DNA from: a virus
Direction: 5' to 3' (one strand)
DNA length: 25,760 bases
IMG/VR virus record: IMGVR_UViG_3300043437_000641
Location: 1 to 25,760 of that record
The notes beneath the pieces are model-generated. The model was not told where the DNA came from, made no database searches, and saw nothing but the letters and a program-made list of their open reading frames with translations. Shown piece after piece: positions 5,980 to 25,248 of this stretch (positions are counted from its first letter, which is position 1; every line of letters begins with the position of its first letter). A program made the translations under genes and the position numbers.

Positions 5980-6255
5980 TTAACAGGATTCCGTTCCGAT
6001 CCATTGGATTTCACCGTCGATGCAGCCGAGCACATGCGTGCCAGATCCGGGTACTTGAGGCAGCTTGAGCTTTCGACCTGTGTATTGGGAAACTCCAACA
6101 TCTTCAATCCAGTCCTCATGGGCGTCGAGCGCAGCGTAGGTGAAGTTCTTCATCAAATCCGACGCCGAGATCCGGTACGGATAGCCCGTGCCATTCGCCG
6201 AGGGCGCGGCCTTGACTTTCTGTTCGAAATCGATGGGTAGTTTGATGTCAGCCAT
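5980..6255 (-). CDS. Small unknown tail-region protein
   Basis: A 91-residue soluble protein, MADIKLPIDFEQKVKAAPSA at the N-terminus, with a GYPYRISASDLMKNFTYAAL core and a VPGSGTHVLGCIDGEIQWIG C-terminal beta hairpin. It ends three bases before the next gene starts and begins four bases after the previous one ends, so it is firmly inside the tail operon. The C-terminal part resembles short fibre or baseplate beta repeats, but no family could be named. Confidence 0.6.
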   Translation of the reverse strand: MADIKLPIDFEQKVKAAPSANGTGYPYRISASDLMKNFTYAALDAHEDWIEDVGVSQYTGRKLKLPQVPGSGTHVLGCIDGEIQWIGTESC

Positions 6256-6259
6256 GGGG

Positions 6260-6967
6260 CTATAATGCTGTTATTTCTCTTCCAGTAACTGTTAGAATTT
6301 CTAGATCATTCGCCTCGAATGATATTGTTGCTTCTTTATAGAAGCCGAAATTGTTTTCTTGATACGATTTCATCTCTGAATACAAAGACCCGCCCAGTAA
6401 GTAAAACAAGCCATAGCGATAAAACACGAACATCAAAGAATTCATGTATCTTGTAATGGTTGGATTGTCTTGGTTTCCAGACTGCACTTCAATCATTGCG
6501 TTTTCATATCGCTGTATACGCACTGATGAATTGATCGAAGTTTCAAGAAATTTTATATTCGATGGGTAATTCTGATAAATCGCAGGGTTTTCTTGAGTGA
6601 ATGTGTGATTGTATGAAATCGAATCCGAGGAATAACGAAGGCCCAAAATTGTGCTAAGCTTTTTGGTTTTGGTCTCAATCCCCGTCATGTTCACTCTGCC
6701 GTACGCGCTCACGATGAACTCGGTGAAGCCATTGTCTCGTTTCTTCTCTTGCGGCTCGGGAAATATCTTGAGGCCGTCCGTTGCGGGGTAACTGCCACCG
6801 GGCATTTCGCTGCCGACCGCGAGTGCATTGCGATTCGTTGCGGCGTCTGATGTCGGGCAGACGAATGACTGGTCGACGCGGATGAGGCCGCTGGGGAATG
6901 TCGAGACCGTGCGCTCGCCGGTCGCGAAGAGCCCGCCCGGTGTTTTCTGGTAGATGATCGCTGGCAT
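6260..6967 (-). CDS. Candidate distal-tail / tail-tip protein, unknown family
   Basis: A 235-residue protein directly downstream of the tape measure gene. It starts MPAIIYQKTPGGLFATGERT and is rich in Tyr, Asn and Ser, with likely beta strands throughout (GFTEFIVSAYGRVNMTGIET, GLFYLLGGSLYSEMKSYQEN). The gene after the tape measure in siphophages usually encodes the distal tail protein or its lambda equivalent gpM, so that is the leading guess. I see no motif that proves it. The ATG follows an AACACCCACCACATTACCAA leader with no Shine-Dalgarno sequence. Confidence 0.6.
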   Translation of the reverse strand: MPAIIYQKTPGGLFATGERTVSTFPSGLIRVDQSFVCPTSDAATNRNALAVGSEMPGGSYPATDGLKIFPEPQEKKRDNGFTEFIVSAYGRVNMTGIETKTKKLSTILGLRYSSDSISYNHTFTQENPAIYQNYPSNIKFLETSINSSVRIQRYENAMIEVQSGNQDNPTITRYMNSLMFVFYRYGLFYLLGGSLYSEMKSYQENNFGFYKEATISFEANDLEILTVTGREITAL

Positions 6968-16700: not shown

Positions 16701-18410
16701 TCAGGCGTTTTTCAAAATGTGCCATGCGATGTGGCACAGCTTGAGCGCGTCCATGAAGTGGTCGTCTCGGACATCCTTCCAGACATAGACTTGACCGGAT
16801 GGCGTTTTGCGCGGGACTAGCTTTTGCCCGCTCAGTCCTGCGATGAACTCGGTGGTGACTTTCTTCGGGATCTTGAGCTCGGGCTTTTGGTCCTTGATTT
16901 TGTCGATGAACAGCTCGGTTTTGATCGCGTGGTCGACATAGGTGTAGAGCACGACGCCGGGGAAGTTGTCGATCGTGGTGCGGCTGATCCGCGTGCCGAA
17001 GGTGACATTCGCGCCCTTTGCAGGGTGAAAGAATCCGCCGGACTCTTGGCAGGTCGCATAGACGCGGAAGGTCGCAAAGCCGGAGTCGATCAAGCCGCAC
17101 TCGGGCTTCACGATACCGCCGCTCGGTGTAGCATAGGACCGCAGTGGCGGATCGCGGAGAAGATCCTCGACTGAAAGCGTGGTGCCGTAGTCCAAGACAT
17201 AGGATGATCCATCGGAAGCGAATGCGGTAGTGACCCAGTGCTGCTTGTCTTGCCCGACATCGGCGCAGGTGACGACATGCGCGGGTTCGTCGATCGGGCA
17301 GGTGCCGACTTCGTAGCTGCCGGAAAGGCCGAGGATCTTGGCGTCGCCGATGCTGGTCTCGACCTGCTCCCACGGCAGGGCCATGGTCGAGTTGGTGAAA
17401 TCTTGCAGACCGTTGAGGGTTTCCGAATCGCGCAGGAACTTGACCGCCAGCGCGCCGAAGGTACAGGACCGCCATGGTGCGTAGAGTGAATTGAGGTGGA
17501 ATGAGCGGAAGCCTTTTTGCGCCGATTCATTGGTGCATTGCCATTTCCCCTGCTGGAGCATTTCCATTTTCTGCCCGTCGTTGATCGAGCCGTGGCAGTG
17601 CTGGCATTCGTAGCGCGCGGATTCTTCGACCTGCGCCATGTTCCACTTGCCGTCGGCCTTGGCCTCGCGGTCCCACTTCACCTGCTCCCACAAAAGCTCG
17701 ATGCGTTCCGCGCAATTCGGGCATGGCAGCATGAACTTTTCCTGCGTGCCTTTGAGGTATTCCTTCCAGATCGGTCCCTCGGGCGTGGTCGGTGTGCTGG
17801 TCTTTACGCGGAGGGCGCCGACGAAAGATTTCGTGCGGTTTTCGGCGAGGTGAAGGGCGCTGGTTTCCTTGTCGGTCTCGGTGGCGAACTTGTCGACCTC
17901 GTCGAGTAGTAGAAGACCGGCGGGGCGGCTGGCAAGGTTGGCCGGTGAGTTGGACCCGACAAAGACGAGCGAGCATCGGCTGAAGTGTTGCTCGAGGGTT
18001 TTGAATTTGTGGCGATCGGCGGGCTTTTGAGCCGAGAGCGTGGCGCTGTCATCGAACAGCGGCATCCATCGCGTTTCGGAAAATGATCGAGCAAGGCCTT
18101 CTGTCGGCATGACCCACACCATCGGCTGCGGCTTGTTGCAAATTCTCCACGCGGTCCCTGCTTGGATCATGGTGGTCTTTCCCGTTTGCGTTCCAAAGAC
18201 GAGCACGACATCCGTCACATCGATGTCACCGAAGCACTCGAGCGGTTCGCGCAGGTACGGCGTCATCGAGACGGAAAAAGCGCCAGGCATTTGCGTCTGA
18301 CGCTCGGAGAGAATCACCTCATCACTGCACCAATCGACCACCGACCGGCGATCGATCGGCGCGTAGATCGAGCGGATGTGCTCGCGCAGGGCTTCGGCGG
18401 CGGGGGTCAT
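16701..18410 (-). CDS. Terminase large subunit, GpA family
   Basis: A 569-residue packaging motor and nuclease. Walker A is GTQTGKTT at 73-80 and Walker B is LLLLDEVD at 166-173. A zinc-finger-like insertion has C230, C233, C269 and C272. The C-terminal nuclease carries likely metal-binding acids at D384 (TCADVGQDKQHW), D442 (IDSGFAT) and D554 (HFMDALKL). All are expected for lambda gpA-type terminases, which cut concatemers and translocate DNA into the prohead. It overlaps the preceding 85-residue gene by four bases (ATGA), so the small cassette gene is coupled to it. The family often makes cos ends; the sequence alone does not show cos. Confidence 0.93.
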   Translation of the reverse strand: MTPAAEALREHIRSIYAPIDRRSVVDWCSDEVILSERQTQMPGAFSVSMTPYLREPLECFGDIDVTDVVLVFGTQTGKTTMIQAGTAWRICNKPQPMVWVMPTEGLARSFSETRWMPLFDDSATLSAQKPADRHKFKTLEQHFSRCSLVFVGSNSPANLASRPAGLLLLDEVDKFATETDKETSALHLAENRTKSFVGALRVKTSTPTTPEGPIWKEYLKGTQEKFMLPCPNCAERIELLWEQVKWDREAKADGKWNMAQVEESARYECQHCHGSINDGQKMEMLQQGKWQCTNESAQKGFRSFHLNSLYAPWRSCTFGALAVKFLRDSETLNGLQDFTNSTMALPWEQVETSIGDAKILGLSGSYEVGTCPIDEPAHVVTCADVGQDKQHWVTTAFASDGSSYVLDYGTTLSVEDLLRDPPLRSYATPSGGIVKPECGLIDSGFATFRVYATCQESGGFFHPAKGANVTFGTRISRTTIDNFPGVVLYTYVDHAIKTELFIDKIKDQKPELKIPKKVTTEFIAGLSGQKLVPRKTPSGQVYVWKDVRDDHFMDALKLCHIAWHILKNA

Positions 18411-18664
18411 AGGGCACTCAAATCGAAGTCACTAGTTCTCCGACCATGCTTATCGATTATTTTTAGGAGAATTTCCGAAACGGTTTTTTGAACCGATAAA
18501 GACGGGTGCTCGACAACACATCCTCGCAAATCGCGAACCACTTGGCCCTCTTCACTAATTCGTTTCTTAGACTCCCTGAAATGCGACAAATTCTCATCAA
18601 AAATTTCAATGATAGCATCGGGGACTCCTTCATTGAGTAAATCTTTAGCCTTTTTTGAGCTCAT
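18407..18664 (-). CDS. Unknown 85-residue helical protein coupled to terL
   Basis: MSSKKAKDLLNEGVPDAIIE at the start, helical and charged throughout, one Cys (C49), no membrane segment. It overlaps the end of the PLD-like gene by 20 bases and the start of terL by four. It is in the AT-richer cassette between the terminase subunits. Not recognised. It could be a partner of the PLD-like protein, because the tight overlap implies co-translation, or a small terminase accessory. Confidence 0.7.
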   Translation of the reverse strand: MSSKKAKDLLNEGVPDAIIEIFDENLSHFRESKKRISEEGQVVRDLRGCVVEHPSLSVQKTVSEILLKIIDKHGRRTSDFDLSAL

Positions 18665-19322
18665 GGCTTACCTGTATTGTTTGGGTGTTTTTGATGTGGT
18701 CGGCTTTTACCTCATTATATGGGCTTTGCTGTTCGATGTTAAGAAGTTCTAGCATTGGGCTATGATTGGCGCCTTCTGGAACCTCGTTAAATATCTCGTC
18801 AACAATAGTCGTCATAAAATCTGATAATGAATCATCTGTTGAAATCTCGATGTTTTCAAGTCTTGGGTTTTCGTTAAGATTCATTGAGGTGCGAGCGACC
18901 ACTGACCAGTTTTCATTTCTAACAACAAAAAACTTCGCATGTGTTCTGATTGCACGAATTGAATCTTGTCCAAAACGCTTGCGCATGTGGTAGCAGTATT
19001 CCGGTTGGCGACTCTCAAATGATCTATCAATAACCATGCGGAGTCTTTTTATTTCCGCAGAGTCGAGAAGTGCTTTTGCTTTTTCCAAATGCGCATCAGC
19101 GGCTGTCCATGTTGAAAGATCAACATAGGCTGGGCCGGTCTGTTTAAGAACATGAACAAGCGCATCGATAAGACTAAATTGTCCAAATGTTAAGATGTAG
19201 ATATCTTGGTTTTTTTTGAGATCGCCGATTGATTGCTCAGCTGTCAATGATTTGCTCAGACGAATATCTCTAGACGCTGTTTTTTTATGAACCCTGGCGG
19301 TTGCTGCGTTTGTTTTTTTCAC
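18645..19322 (-). CDS. Phospholipase D-like (PLDc) superfamily protein, possible nuclease
   Basis: A 225-residue protein from a GTG. The core HAKFFVVRNENWSVVARTSM at 128-147 followed by NLNENPRLENIEIS fits the single HKD module of PLD-like nucleases: H128 and K130 spaced H-x-K, then a strand, Ser/Asn-rich turn and N-x-E. The Asp usually seven residues after the His is Arg here (R135, then Asn136), so activity is uncertain. One-module PLD proteins normally dimerise to make an active site. An earlier FGQFSLIDALVHVLKQ helix matches the first half of the fold. The gene is AT-richer than terminase genes on both sides, overlaps both cassette neighbours, and its role is unknown (packaging-associated nuclease, defence or anti-defence). 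Confidence 0.75.
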   Translation of the reverse strand: MKKTNAATARVHKKTASRDIRLSKSLTAEQSIGDLKKNQDIYILTFGQFSLIDALVHVLKQTGPAYVDLSTWTAADAHLEKAKALLDSAEIKRLRMVIDRSFESRQPEYCYHMRKRFGQDSIRAIRTHAKFFVVRNENWSVVARTSMNLNENPRLENIEISTDDSLSDFMTTIVDEIFNEVPEGANHSPMLELLNIEQQSPYNEVKADHIKNTQTIQVSHELKKG

Positions 19323-19455
19323 TGTTTTTAATTCCTTTCTTTCTTCTATTAGACATTTCTGTCGCTCTTTGTGCTGCTGATAATTTTGACCAGCGTGAAA
19401 GAGCAGCTTTGCTTTGTTGCGTTTTTATTTCATGGCCACACTTGGGACATTTCAT
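19285..19455 (-). CDS. 56-residue protein with CPKCG knuckle
   Basis: MKCPKCGHEIKTQQSKAALS at the start, then SRWSKLSAAQRATEMSNRRK and a very basic tail. The single CPKCGHE knuckle suggests half a zinc ribbon. The middle (RW..L....R...MS.RR) is reminiscent of short NUMOD-type DNA-binding motifs that accompany homing or mobile genes, but this is weak. It overlaps the PLD-like gene by 38 bases. Its ATG sits in the arm of an inverted repeat just after a candidate promoter. It is the first gene of the cassette. Confidence 0.6.
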   Translation of the reverse strand: MKCPKCGHEIKTQQSKAALSRWSKLSAAQRATEMSNRRKKGIKNSEKNKRSNRQGS

Positions 19456-19466
19456 GTGTGAAATGT
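19447..19466. promoter_or_regulatory. Inverted repeat over start codon, candidate operator
   Basis: ACATTTCA-TGTG-TGAAATGT: two perfect 8-bp arms with a four-base spacer. On the minus strand the left arm covers the candidate -10 and the right arm covers codons 1-3 of the zinc-knuckle gene, so a bound repressor could block transcription. Part of the symmetry is coding, so chance is possible. Confidence 0.45.
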
Positions 19467-19489
19467 ATCACGACACACGCGCATGTCAA
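19462..19489 (-). promoter_or_regulatory. Candidate promoter for the PLD cassette
   Basis: Minus strand TTGACA (19489-19484), 16-base spacer, TACATT (19467-19462). The -35 is consensus and the -10 matches four of six. Transcription would start near the ATG at 19455, giving an almost leaderless mRNA. Confidence 0.45.
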
Positions 19490-19506
19490 AAGGAAAAGGA
19501 AGTTTT

Positions 19507-20115
19507 TTATAGGGTTTTTCGAATCATTTCTGTGAGATTGTCGATCCATTCAGCGAGCGCGTTTTCGATCGCTTTCTGGGGTTGGCCGTAGAGCCGAGGT
19601 GCGAGGGTCTTGGCTGCGATTTCGAGAGTCTGCTTCACCGCCACATGCGGGCGACCGGCGATCTCCTTGGCCTCGTCGAAGTAGAGCAGAATCCCCTCAG
19701 CGCGTTGCCACTCCTTGAAGTCGCGCTCGGCTTTGTGGCGGTTGTTCCTGGCGGCGATGTAGATCGAGTTGGCCTTTCGAATGTCCTCGATCGATCCGCC
19801 GTTCCGTTTGCAGAGCACCAGTTCGTTGTAGCCGACCTTTTCCGCCAACCTCGCCCGGCGAAGTGACTGGCGCGGGGTGTTGTCATCGTCATCCGGTTCG
19901 GGCGCGTCATGCGCTTGGGCTGTGACCGGCTGGGGCTTGGCGACCGGCGGCGGGGCGTCCATCACCTTTTTGTTCTTCCGGGGCTTTGGCTTCGCGTTCA
20001 CCTCACGCCACGCCTGCGCTGCATCCACCGAAGTGGTCGGCATCCCCTTCTTCACGAACCGCGAAACGAGACCTTTGTCGATCTCGAGGGCTTTGCTCAG
20101 TTCCGTGATCCCCAT
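19507..20115 (-). CDS. Terminase small subunit (Nu1-like)
   Basis: A 202-residue protein. N-terminal helix-turn-helix (MGITELSKALEIDKGLVSRF, then VKKGMP) matches the winged HTH start of Nu1-type small terminases and of excisionase-like proteins. Residues 40-80 are a Pro/Lys-rich linker (KPKPRKNKKV, APPPVAKPQP). The C-terminal half is helical and basic (SIYIAARNNRHKAERDFKEW, ENALAEWIDNLTEMIRKTL), suited to oligomerisation and TerL contact. It is the first packaging gene, but it is separated from terL by the three-gene cassette. Its upstream gap carries paired TGTTGACTT repeats. Confidence 0.8.
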   Translation of the reverse strand: MGITELSKALEIDKGLVSRFVKKGMPTTSVDAAQAWREVNAKPKPRKNKKVMDAPPPVAKPQPVTAQAHDAPEPDDDDNTPRQSLRRARLAEKVGYNELVLCKRNGGSIEDIRKANSIYIAARNNRHKAERDFKEWQRAEGILLYFDEAKEIAGRPHVAVKQTLEIAAKTLAPRLYGQPQKAIENALAEWIDNLTEMIRKTL

Positions 20116-23939: not shown

Positions 23940-24208
23940 TGCGGGCCTCCTTTCACTTCCTCGACCGCTTTGCGTAGCGCGGCGATGTAAACTCCGGTGT
24001 GTTCCACCTGTTTCCAGAATGGCGTTTTCCAGCGATCAACCACGGCAAGCGCAGCGTCTGTTAGTCTCCCCAGCTTTTCCATGGCCTCAATCGCTTCGTC
24101 GATGGCTTCTCCTATTCCCCGCGGATCGGGTTGTTCCATATCCTCATCTGACCTTCGCCATAAGTTGAAATCACGCAGGGTTTGGATGGTTTTTTGAATG
24201 TCACTCAT
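23936..24208 (-). CDS. Small helical protein, unknown
   Basis: Ninety residues, MSDIQKTIQTLRDFNLWRRS at the start, strongly helical and acidic (GEAIDEAIEAMEKLGRLTDA). The ATG has the Shine-Dalgarno GGAGG in AAGGAGGGAGCG and overlaps the previous gene by eight bases. The same leader precedes the next gene upstream, so the two genes are regulated alike. No known family. Confidence 0.6.
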   Translation of the reverse strand: MSDIQKTIQTLRDFNLWRRSDEDMEQPDPRGIGEAIDEAIEAMEKLGRLTDAALAVVDRWKTPFWKQVEHTGVYIAALRKAVEEVKGGPQ

Positions 24209-24524
24209 CGCTCCCTCCTTTCCATTTCTTAATTGTTTTTAGAAATGCTTCAGCGCGTTGGGCTGCGGTTGCCATATACATACAGTTTCTCCCTTTAATT
24301 GTTAGATCGCAAAGCTCGTTAATATATCGACAATACAGTGCAGTATCAAATACCTTCTCCGCTTCGTGCATTGCGTTGAGGTCGTTGCAGTAGTTGGGGA
24401 GGTGATAAGCATCACGGTCTTCTTGTGGCTGTGTTCCCATCCATTTACCGTGGATAGAATTGTAGCGAATAGAGGTCCACCCACACACTTCCGCAATTGC
24501 TATGTTTATTTGTTCGTTAGTCAT
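24201..24524 (-). CDS. Unknown 107-residue early protein
   Basis: The start at 24524 (MTNEQINIAIAEVCGWTSIR) is chosen over the longer frame because AAGGAGGGAGCG sits just before it and it overlaps the preceding stop by eight bases. It has a TSIRYNSIHGKWMGTQPQED stretch, then YHLPNYCNDLNAMHEAEKVF and a basic helical end. The opening INIAIAEVCGW followed later by YxxDLNAMHEAE is seen in many small phage proteins of unknown function. Its DNA is AT-richer than its neighbours. Confidence 0.68.
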   Translation of the reverse strand: MTNEQINIAIAEVCGWTSIRYNSIHGKWMGTQPQEDRDAYHLPNYCNDLNAMHEAEKVFDTALYCRYINELCDLTIKGRNCMYMATAAQRAEAFLKTIKKWKGGSDE

Positions 24525-25248
24525 CGCTCCCTCCTTCCACGGCTTCGAGGGTGTTCCATAAAATCCTGTCAACAGAATCACCAGAAGTCAGTTTAAGCTC
24601 ATCTCTGTGTTTTCGTATTGCCTCAGCCAGCCTGTCGCGTTGCTCTGTGACCCGCATTGCCGCCAAAAGCGGTCCTTCATGTGCAGTCGCGCCCAATGCT
24701 CTCCTAGCATCTTCGATAGTCGCCCTGCATTCGTTATATCCGATGAGGGCGGCATCACGCTCTTCTCTTGTCTTTTTCCAAGTGGCAATAGCTTCGTTTG
24801 CAAGTGCGCGCTCGCGTTCCACCTCGCGTTTGAGTTGGACATTCTCCCGCTGCGTTGCGCTTGCGTAGTCCCAGATCGTTCCCGCTGGGTCCATCATCTC
24901 GCATCCGAGATCCTTGTTTTGTTGGATTTGCTTTGCCTTCCACTCGTCGCGTTCAGCCCTCACATCATTGAGTTGCTGCTCTTGAACTTGGAAAAGCCCA
25001 CGGCGAAATTCCAAGTCAGCTCGCACCTCATCGAGGGCGGAGTTGAGTCGATTGACCTCCACCTTCAGCGCCGTCTCGCGGTCCAAAACGGATCGCATGA
25101 TCTTGCACATCGATGTGATCGAGATGTGATGGCTCGCGCGACCGCCGCAGCACCCGCAGTCATAGTCCCTCTCCACGGGCATCGGGCGCAGGCAGGTAGG
25201 GCAGTCCCAGTAGTCGTCATCAGGCTGCTGATTTTCCTCTTCGTACAT
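24517..25248 (-). CDS. Zinc-ribbon coiled-coil protein next to exonuclease
   Basis: A 243-residue protein. N-terminal Cys set: CPTC at 16-19 and CGCC at 31-34, a compact zinc ribbon. The rest is long coiled coil (DRETALKVEVNRLNSALDEV, then REVERERALANEAIATWKKT and RVTEQRDRLAEAIRKHRDEL). It overlaps the exonuclease by 29 bases, so co-translation is likely. Zinc ribbon plus coiled coil suggests a bridging or regulatory partner, perhaps in recombination, but this is inference. It begins with an AAGAAACAAAAAC leader without a Shine-Dalgarno sequence. Confidence 0.68.
   Translation of the reverse strand: MYEEENQQPDDDYWDCPTCLRPMPVERDYDCGCCGGRASHHISITSMCKIMRSVLDRETALKVEVNRLNSALDEVRADLEFRRGLFQVQEQQLNDVRAERDEWKAKQIQQNKDLGCEMMDPAGTIWDYASATQRENVQLKREVERERALANEAIATWKKTREERDAALIGYNECRATIEDARRALGATAHEGPLLAAMRVTEQRDRLAEAIRKHRDELKLTSGDSVDRILWNTLEAVEGGSDD

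What the first reader, a model, noticed from the sequence alone, without database searches (positions are those of the whole stretch)
18407..19489. AT-richer three-gene PLD cassette inserted between the terminase subunits
Between small and large terminase, usually neighbours, sit a zinc-knuckle protein (56 aa), a PLD-superfamily protein (225 aa) and an 85-aa protein, overlapping each other by 38 and 20 bases and overlapping terL by four. The DNA is visibly AT-richer than either terminase gene. A consensus TTGACA with a 16-base spacer to TACATT and an 8-bp inverted repeat over the first start codon look like private control. Two explanations fit: a moron for defence or anti-defence, or a packaging nuclease in the slot that HNH enzymes take in other phages. 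The tight coupling to terL favours a packaging link; the promoter and base composition favour a moron.
Basis: partly seen in the sequence, partly recalled or inferred. Interest (0 to 1): 0.7.

Follow-up and report, generated by a model that had tools for sequence, protein, structure and literature searches.

The report
Mobile nuclease cassette between phage terminases
Between the two DNA-packaging genes of this phage sits a 1.1 kb swappable gene cassette that carries a PLD-type nuclease and a miniature copy of a different phage's DNA-recognition packaging protein; close relatives lack it or carry other cargo there, so it is probably an optional, mobile DNA-cutting module and not part of the core packaging machine.

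Summary
In detail: 56-, 225- and 85-codon ORFs at 41% GC lie between TerS and TerL (about 59%), with the stated overlaps, promoter-like site and inverted repeat. Two labels change. ORF1 is not a zinc knuckle. The 85-aa protein is a miniature small terminase of the P27/Terminase_4 family, unrelated to the phage's own 202-aa TerS.

The cassette is an accessory insertion. In 28 contigs with nearly the same TerL, TerS and TerL overlap directly (CCCT|ATGA); the window carries 1,100 bp more, flanked by CCCTAT repeats. Ten other relatives hold ParB-like/methyltransferase or Mom-like cargo in the same slot, one with a second, distant PLD. Two related phages share the whole cassette at 88-93% DNA identity although their TerS and TerL are 50% and 65% identical, so it moved as a unit into the same slot.

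PLD plus mini-TerS is conserved in 27 other fetched loci closest to it, usually near TerL, in either orientation, and alongside packaging HNH genes. Best reading: a mobile two-gene nuclease whose TerS-like partner targets DNA, used for inter-phage competition or homing-like spread. A packaging-helper role is the main rival. Cleavage, targeting and benefit are inferred, not shown.

The parts
18411..19510 (-). inserted unit, net 1,100 bp, absent from 28 close relatives
   Evidence: empty junction ...CCCT|ATGA in relatives
19507..19514 (-). left copy of the junction sequence, CCCTATAA
   Evidence: 6-bp direct repeat CCCTAT with the right copy
18407..18414 (-). right copy of the junction sequence, CCCTATGA, containing the TerL start
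19462..19489 (-). promoter-like site TTGACA-16-TACATT, extended -10 TG
   Evidence: TTGACA also lies just after the TerS stop in related cassettes L010/L011
19447..19466 (.). operator-like inverted repeat over the ORF1 start codon
   Evidence: L010/L011 carry a different 7-8 bp inverted repeat beside their TTGACA
19285..19455 (-). ORF1, 56 aa small basic protein with one CPxCG; probably a DNA-binding regulator (inference)
   Evidence: HTH, RHH-like or basic small ORFs precede PLD in several other loci
18645..19322 (-). PLD-superfamily nuclease, NucT-like, phrog_16945
18933..18941 (-). codons of the catalytic-type H128-x-K130
   Evidence: invariant in 57 of 57 homologs
18855..18881 (-). codons N148 to E156, both invariant
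18407..18664 (-). mini small terminase, P27/Terminase_4 core, 85 aa
19507..20115 (-). the phage's own TerS (202 aa, HTH-like N-terminus), upstream flank
   Evidence: phrog_57 E=0.011 only; directly abuts TerL in 28 relatives
16701..18410 (-). TerL, GpA type, downstream flank
   Evidence: PF05876 E=7e-62, PF20454 4e-21

Best explanation
An accessory, horizontally mobile cassette occupies a variable slot between TerS and TerL. Its unit is a private promoter, a small basic gene (probable regulator), a PLD nuclease and a mini P27-type TerS. Shown: its boundaries, patchy presence, transfer as a unit into the same slot, and conserved pairing of the nuclease with the TerS-like protein. Inferred: the mini-TerS, perhaps as an oligomer, binds DNA near a packaging site or terminase genes and positions the PLD nuclease there. 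The cut acts on DNA of competing phages or satellites that lack the cassette, and repair may copy the cassette and its flanks into them (free-standing homing), which would explain why it collects near terminase genes in any orientation.
For: Empty site: 28 of 40 contigs with TerL 79-99% identical have TerS overlapping TerL at CCCT|ATGA; the window has net +1,100 bp with CCCTAT at both ends. Same slot, other cargo: ten relatives carry ParB-like plus methyltransferase, Mom-like or other genes. L105, with TerL 99% identical, has a distant second PLD there (phrog_16945, 2.3e-12). Transfer as a unit: L010 vs L011 DNA identity is TerS 50%, leader+ORF1 93%, PLD 92%, P27 88%, TerL 65%, breaking at the gene junctions. 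Conserved pair: all 25 fetched viral loci closest in PLD sequence (L010-L033, L059) plus genome loci L088 and L089 have a P27-like ORF overlapping or abutting the PLD 3' end, and 28 of 28 P27 proteins tested match Terminase_4. Autonomy: the cassette is inverted between TerS and TerL in L015, convergent after TerL in L025/L032, and 32 kb from terL in Arthrobacter phage Orcanus, which has its own terS. Location bias: 12 of 18 contigs of at least 20 kb have it within 2.5 kb of TerL, 3.1 expected, P=4e-6. Active-site H, K, N, E invariant in 57 of 57; fold like Nuc, NucT and the NgoAVII R protein.
Against: No cleavage, binding or transfer has been observed. PLD is not among the homing-endonuclease families listed in PMC6083498. 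PLD genes occur in whole groups of Gordonia and Arthrobacter phages, which looks more like a stable function than a selfish one. In other lineages the PLD gene precedes other TerS types or TerL itself, which points to packaging. The window's flanking TerS is mosaic, so co-conversion cannot be read cleanly. Location bias was measured on incomplete contigs.
Confidence: 0.45

Rival explanations
1. Packaging helper: the PLD enzyme cuts or trims DNA with the terminase (cos nicking, removal of branches), as HNH gp74 stimulates cos cleavage in HK97, with the mini-TerS guiding it.
For: PLD lies next to TerS of several unrelated types and TerL across phage groups. Cos phage phi16 carries it as ORF1 beside its cohesive end and BetterKatz as gp1 four genes before terS. 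HK97 gp74 precedent: PMC9410871, PMC11331095. Location bias P=4e-6.
Against: Absent from 28 near-identical phages, inverted in L015, far from terL in some phages, and coexists with HNH genes near terminases in L036, L038, L043, L051 and Orcanus. In Skunavirus the packaging HNH is present in all 89 genomes at one place whereas the other HNH genes are patchy (PMC12724721); this cassette behaves like the patchy class.
Confidence: 0.27
2. Anti-satellite, anti-competitor or anti-host moron without homing: the nuclease destroys foreign DNA bearing a TerS-recognised site, and the slot is simply a tolerated cargo site.
For: The slot also holds methyltransferase and Mom-like modification genes, probably anti-restriction cargo; own promoter and operator-like repeat; AT-rich DNA, 15 points below the contig against a family mean of 5.
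Against: No PADLOC match, no match on plasmids, no immunity partner identified. A P27 partner is not explained by general defence.
Confidence: 0.2
3. The mini-P27 is an alternative TerS that changes packaging specificity, and the PLD is its nuclease helper.
For: P27 homologs are the annotated TerS in BetterKatz and Popper.
Against: The window, L010, L011, L015 and L030 each also have an unrelated own TerS-like gene next to TerL. The mini form lacks the C-terminal extension of several full P27 proteins and the TerL here is GpA type.
Confidence: 0.05

Closest known systems
NucT-like phage nucleases (phrog_16945; Gordonia BetterKatz gp1, Arthrobacter Orcanus gp55)
   Same: same protein family, 30-39% identity over most of the length; also followed by, or near, a P27-type gene
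   Different: there at the genome left end or among other genes, apparently fixed in their phage groups; the annotated records do not describe the P27 pairing or mobility
Nuc / H. pylori NucT / PLD-type restriction nucleases (NgoAVII R, SauUSI; BfiI from own knowledge)
   Same: predicted fold matches 1byr, 6ehi, 4rct, 7clg; H, K, N, E of the active site
   Different: lacks the Asp of the HKD motif (position 135 variable); no fused DNA-recognition domain, possibly replaced by the separate mini-TerS
P27-family small terminases (Terminase_4, TIGR01558)
   Same: sequence and predicted fold
   Different: 85 aa core only, supernumerary beside an unrelated TerS, coupled to a nuclease gene
Free-standing homing endonucleases of T4 and Skunavirus (PMC2988022, PMC12724721)
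   Same: intergenic nuclease gene, patchy among close relatives, same site reused, empty alleles known
   Different: PLD fold instead of GIY-YIG or HNH; a separate TerS-like partner; homing not demonstrated
Packaging HNH proteins (HK97 gp74)
   Same: small nuclease gene near TerS/TerL
   Different: different fold; fixed rather than patchy; coexists with PLD in several phages

Membership tests
PLD-superfamily nuclease | HxK and downstream N, E catalytic residues | tested here: met
   H128, K130, N148, E156 invariant in 57 of 57
PLD-superfamily nuclease | full HKD motif with Asp and GSxN | tested here: not met
   position 135 is R/T/K/S/E; [ST]SxNxN instead of GSxN
PLD-superfamily nuclease | PLD fold | tested here: met
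   model pLDDT 84.8; Foldseek prob 1.00 to Nuc, NucT, Zucchini
PLD-superfamily nuclease | dimeric active site and DNA cleavage | not testable with these tools
   single-chain model only
P27 small terminase | Terminase_4 profile match | tested here: met
   28 of 28 family members at E<=0.01; the window copy alone is below the curated cut-off (18.5 vs 24.7 bits)
P27 small terminase | fold shared with P27 TerS | tested here: met
   Foldseek to viral P27 TerS models, rmsd 0.8 A over 54 columns, prob 1.00; no PDB match
P27 small terminase | is the phage's TerS | tested here: not met
   a separate unrelated 202-aa TerS abuts TerL in relatives without the cassette
free-standing homing endonuclease | patchy presence with an empty allele at the same site | tested here: met
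   28 empty, window and L005 filled
free-standing homing endonuclease | transfer into the same site in diverged genomes | tested here: met
   L010/L011 identity profile
free-standing homing endonuclease | flanking co-conversion tract | tested here: inconclusive
   TerS 3' haplotype tracks a filled slot (9 of 9 vs 0 of 24) whatever the cargo; related contigs are not independent
free-standing homing endonuclease | catalytic domain of a known homing family | tested here: not met
   PLD is not in the list of PMC6083498 (abstract)
free-standing homing endonuclease | cuts the cassette-free allele | not testable with these tools
   needs biochemistry
packaging HNH protein | HNH domain | tested here: not met
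   no PF01844 in the window
packaging HNH protein | fixed next to terminase in all close relatives | tested here: not met
known anti-phage defence system | match to PADLOC models | tested here: not met

The most novel reading that the evidence does not exclude
A two-component homing or exclusion nuclease in which a captured small-terminase core replaces the usual DNA-binding domain: the mini-TerS recognises packaging or terminase-gene DNA and directs a PLD nuclease to rival genomes lacking the cassette, spreading it into the TerS/TerL junction. To my knowledge this would be the first PLD-fold homing system and the first use of a terminase subunit as a targeting module.
Probability: 0.25. Interest if true: 0.85.

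Novelty: new variant of a known kind. Interest (0 to 1): 0.6.

Why it matters
It identifies a conserved gene pair, a PLD nuclease plus a TerS-like protein, that moves between phages as a cassette and reuses the TerS/TerL junction. That junction is a cargo slot in this phage group that also accepts ParB-like/methyltransferase and Mom-like modules. If the TerS-like partner targets the nuclease, packaging-site recognition has been reused for competition between phages, which is directly testable with two small proteins. It also gives 'NucT-like nuclease' and short 'hypothetical' genes in many phage genomes a concrete hypothesis.

Tried and rejected
Zinc-knuckle label for ORF1: one CxxC only, weak matches, no cysteines in the equivalent ORF of relatives. 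PLD as an HNH replacement: both coexist. Core packaging gene of this lineage: 28 empty relatives. Plasmid or defence-island origin: no plasmid match, no PADLOC match. Low GC as proof of recent import: PLD genes are on average 5 points below their contigs (Wilcoxon 3e-6, loci partly related), so only the remaining 10 points are unusual. PDB comparison of the mini-P27: no match. HK97 TerS does not match the mini-P27 profile, so the HK97 structure was not used as a template argument. Literature on NucT with terminase: no paper held; phospholipase D with small terminase: one unrelated paper. Searches were script errors or input refusals and were repeated in proper form or dropped; an HMM step failed and was repeated.

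Full report
WHAT IS THERE. The window is an IMG/VR virus contig of 25,760 bp. On the minus strand the order is TerS (19507-20115), ORF1 (19285-19455, 56 aa), PLD (18645-19322, 225 aa, GTG start), an 85-aa ORF (18407-18664) and TerL (16701-18410), with overlaps of 38, 20 and 4 bases. TerL is GpA type (PF05876 E=7e-62, PF20454 4e-21). The three inserted genes have GC 0.39-0.42 against 0.59-0.60 for the flanks, and the segment is the most AT-rich kilobase of the contig. The promoter-like site TTGACA-16-TACATT (10 of 12, extended -10) and the inverted repeat ACATTTCA-CACA-TGAAATGT over the ORF1 start are present.

IDENTITIES. The PLD protein matches phrog_16945 'endonuclease' (3.6e-51) and 58 phage records, mostly annotated NucT-like nuclease. 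Its model (pLDDT 84.8) matches Nuc 1byr, H. pylori NucT 6ehi, Zucchini and PLD-type restriction nucleases 4rct and 7clg. H128, K130, N148 and E156 are invariant in 57 of 57 homologs, while the Asp of the classical HKD motif is absent, so an active nuclease is likely but unproven. The 85-aa protein matches Terminase_4 weakly alone (E=0.0027), but all 28 members of its family alignment match that model. By tblastn it hits annotated TerS genes of Arthrobacter phages (7e-6). A profile of the PLD-linked short proteins hits Popper gp3 (4e-25), BetterKatz gp5 and Orcanus gp56 but not the window's own TerS. Its model superposes on predicted viral P27 TerS at 0.8 A over 54 columns. It is therefore a mini P27-type TerS. 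ORF1 is a small basic protein with one CPxCG; small HTH, RHH-like or basic ORFs precede PLD in several other loci, so a regulatory role is inferred.

THE SLOT. Forty contigs encode a TerL 79-99% identical to the window's. Twenty-eight have TerS running straight into TerL at CCCT|ATGA. One (L136, same contig as L005) has the PLD cassette, one is truncated, and ten carry other cargo: ParB-like plus DNA methyltransferase (L105, L123, L128, L129, L135), ParB-like plus Mom-like protein (L126 by phrog_1384, 4.6e-59; L137 and L138 read by eye), ParB-like plus a cytosine-methyltransferase-like gene (L139), and ParB-like with a phosphoribosyltransferase-like region and a SLOG-like gene (L104) (only the L105 and L126 proteins were scanned against a family library, the others are named from sequence reading). 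L105 also has a diverged PLD of the same PHROG (2.3e-12). The window differs from the empty allele by a net 1,100 bp, with CCCTAT at both ends. The filled alleles share a TerS 3' haplotype not seen in the empty ones (9 of 9 against 0 of 24), but the contigs are related, and the last 24 bases of the window's TerS resemble the empty type, so the history is a mosaic.

MOBILITY. L010 and L011 are related phages with the same gene order. Their DNA identity runs TerS 50%, leader plus ORF1 93%, PLD 92%, P27 88%, TerL 65%. The breaks at the TerS stop and the TerL start show that promoter region, ORF1, PLD and P27 moved together into the same slot. TTGACA directly after the TerS stop is present in both and in the window, although the -10 of L010/L011 is weak (none scored in L011).

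WIDER DISTRIBUTION. Scans gave 174 relatives in viral contigs (80 kept) and 14 in genome contigs. In the 27 fetched loci most similar to the window's PLD (L010-L033, L059, L088, L089; a few are near-duplicates) a P27-like ORF overlaps or abuts the PLD 3' end (in L010 and L025/L059 the ORF caller picks a start further upstream). More distant PLD genes precede other TerS-like genes or TerL directly. The pair is inverted between TerS and TerL in L015, convergent behind TerL in L025 and L032, and far away in L017, L018, L021 and Orcanus; Orcanus has its own terS and terL at the left end. Among 18 contigs of at least 20 kb, 12 have it within 2.5 kb of TerL, 3.1 expected, P=4e-6 (rough, contigs incomplete). 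HNH genes lie near the terminase genes in L036, L038, L043, L051 and Orcanus as well, so PLD does not simply replace HNH.

INTERPRETATION. A fixed packaging part should be present in near-identical phages; this one is not. In Skunavirus the packaging-linked HNH is in all 89 genomes at one place, while homing-type HNH genes are patchy (PMC12724721). By that criterion the window's cassette behaves like mobile cargo. What sets it apart is the TerS-like partner. Small terminases recognise cos or pac DNA (PMC11331095), and free-standing homing nucleases may cut hundreds or thousands of bases from where they sit (PMC2988022). A mini-TerS guiding a PLD nuclease to rival packaging or terminase regions would explain the pairing, the location bias, the indifference to orientation and the patchiness in one step. 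That is inference. The rival, a helper of the phage's own packaging similar to gp74 in HK97 (PMC9410871), is kept alive by phi16, a cos phage with 14-nt 3' ends whose ORF1 is this nuclease, and by PLD genes next to unrelated TerS types.

VERDICT. Observation confirmed with two relabelled proteins; accessory mobile cassette well supported (about 0.85); targeted nuclease for competition or homing about 0.45; packaging helper about 0.27.

Noticed in passing
L104, L105, L123, L126, L128, L129, L135, L137, L138, L139 (TerS/TerL junction): In relatives the TerS/TerL junction is a cargo slot holding ParB-like/methyltransferase, Mom-like and other genes that run up to the TerL ATG.
   Followed up: partly
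window 19530-19710 and the equivalent part of TerS in L102-L141: The TerS 3' third exists as two alleles: all cargo-bearing phages share one, all empty ones another.
   Followed up: partly
L108:4282-5295 and L127:4276-5271: HNH-type gene of about 330 aa, low GC, inserted one gene upstream of TerS in two relatives, a second cargo site.
   Followed up: partly
L002:1149-1379 (corynephage phi16 gp2): The annotated 76-aa 'terminase small subunit' looks like the first part of a frameshifted P27 gene; the conserved C-terminal part lies in another frame just downstream.
   Followed up: partly
L034, L036, L046, L072: PLD and P27-like genes lie in opposite orientations close to each other, so the pairing does not need co-transcription.
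   Followed up: no
L043 (L093), Corynebacterium prophage: HNH, PLD, P27-like, ParB-like and methyltransferase-like genes lie together upstream of TerL, combining the cargo types seen separately in the window's relatives.
   Followed up: no
window 6201-6600 and 24201-24581: Two further AT-rich stretches (GC 0.385 and 0.45) in otherwise GC-richer DNA.
   Followed up: no
window TerL 16701-18410: The nearest TerL in the annotated phage collection is Akkermansia phage Moulinsart at 35% identity, which hints at a Verrucomicrobiota host.
   Followed up: no
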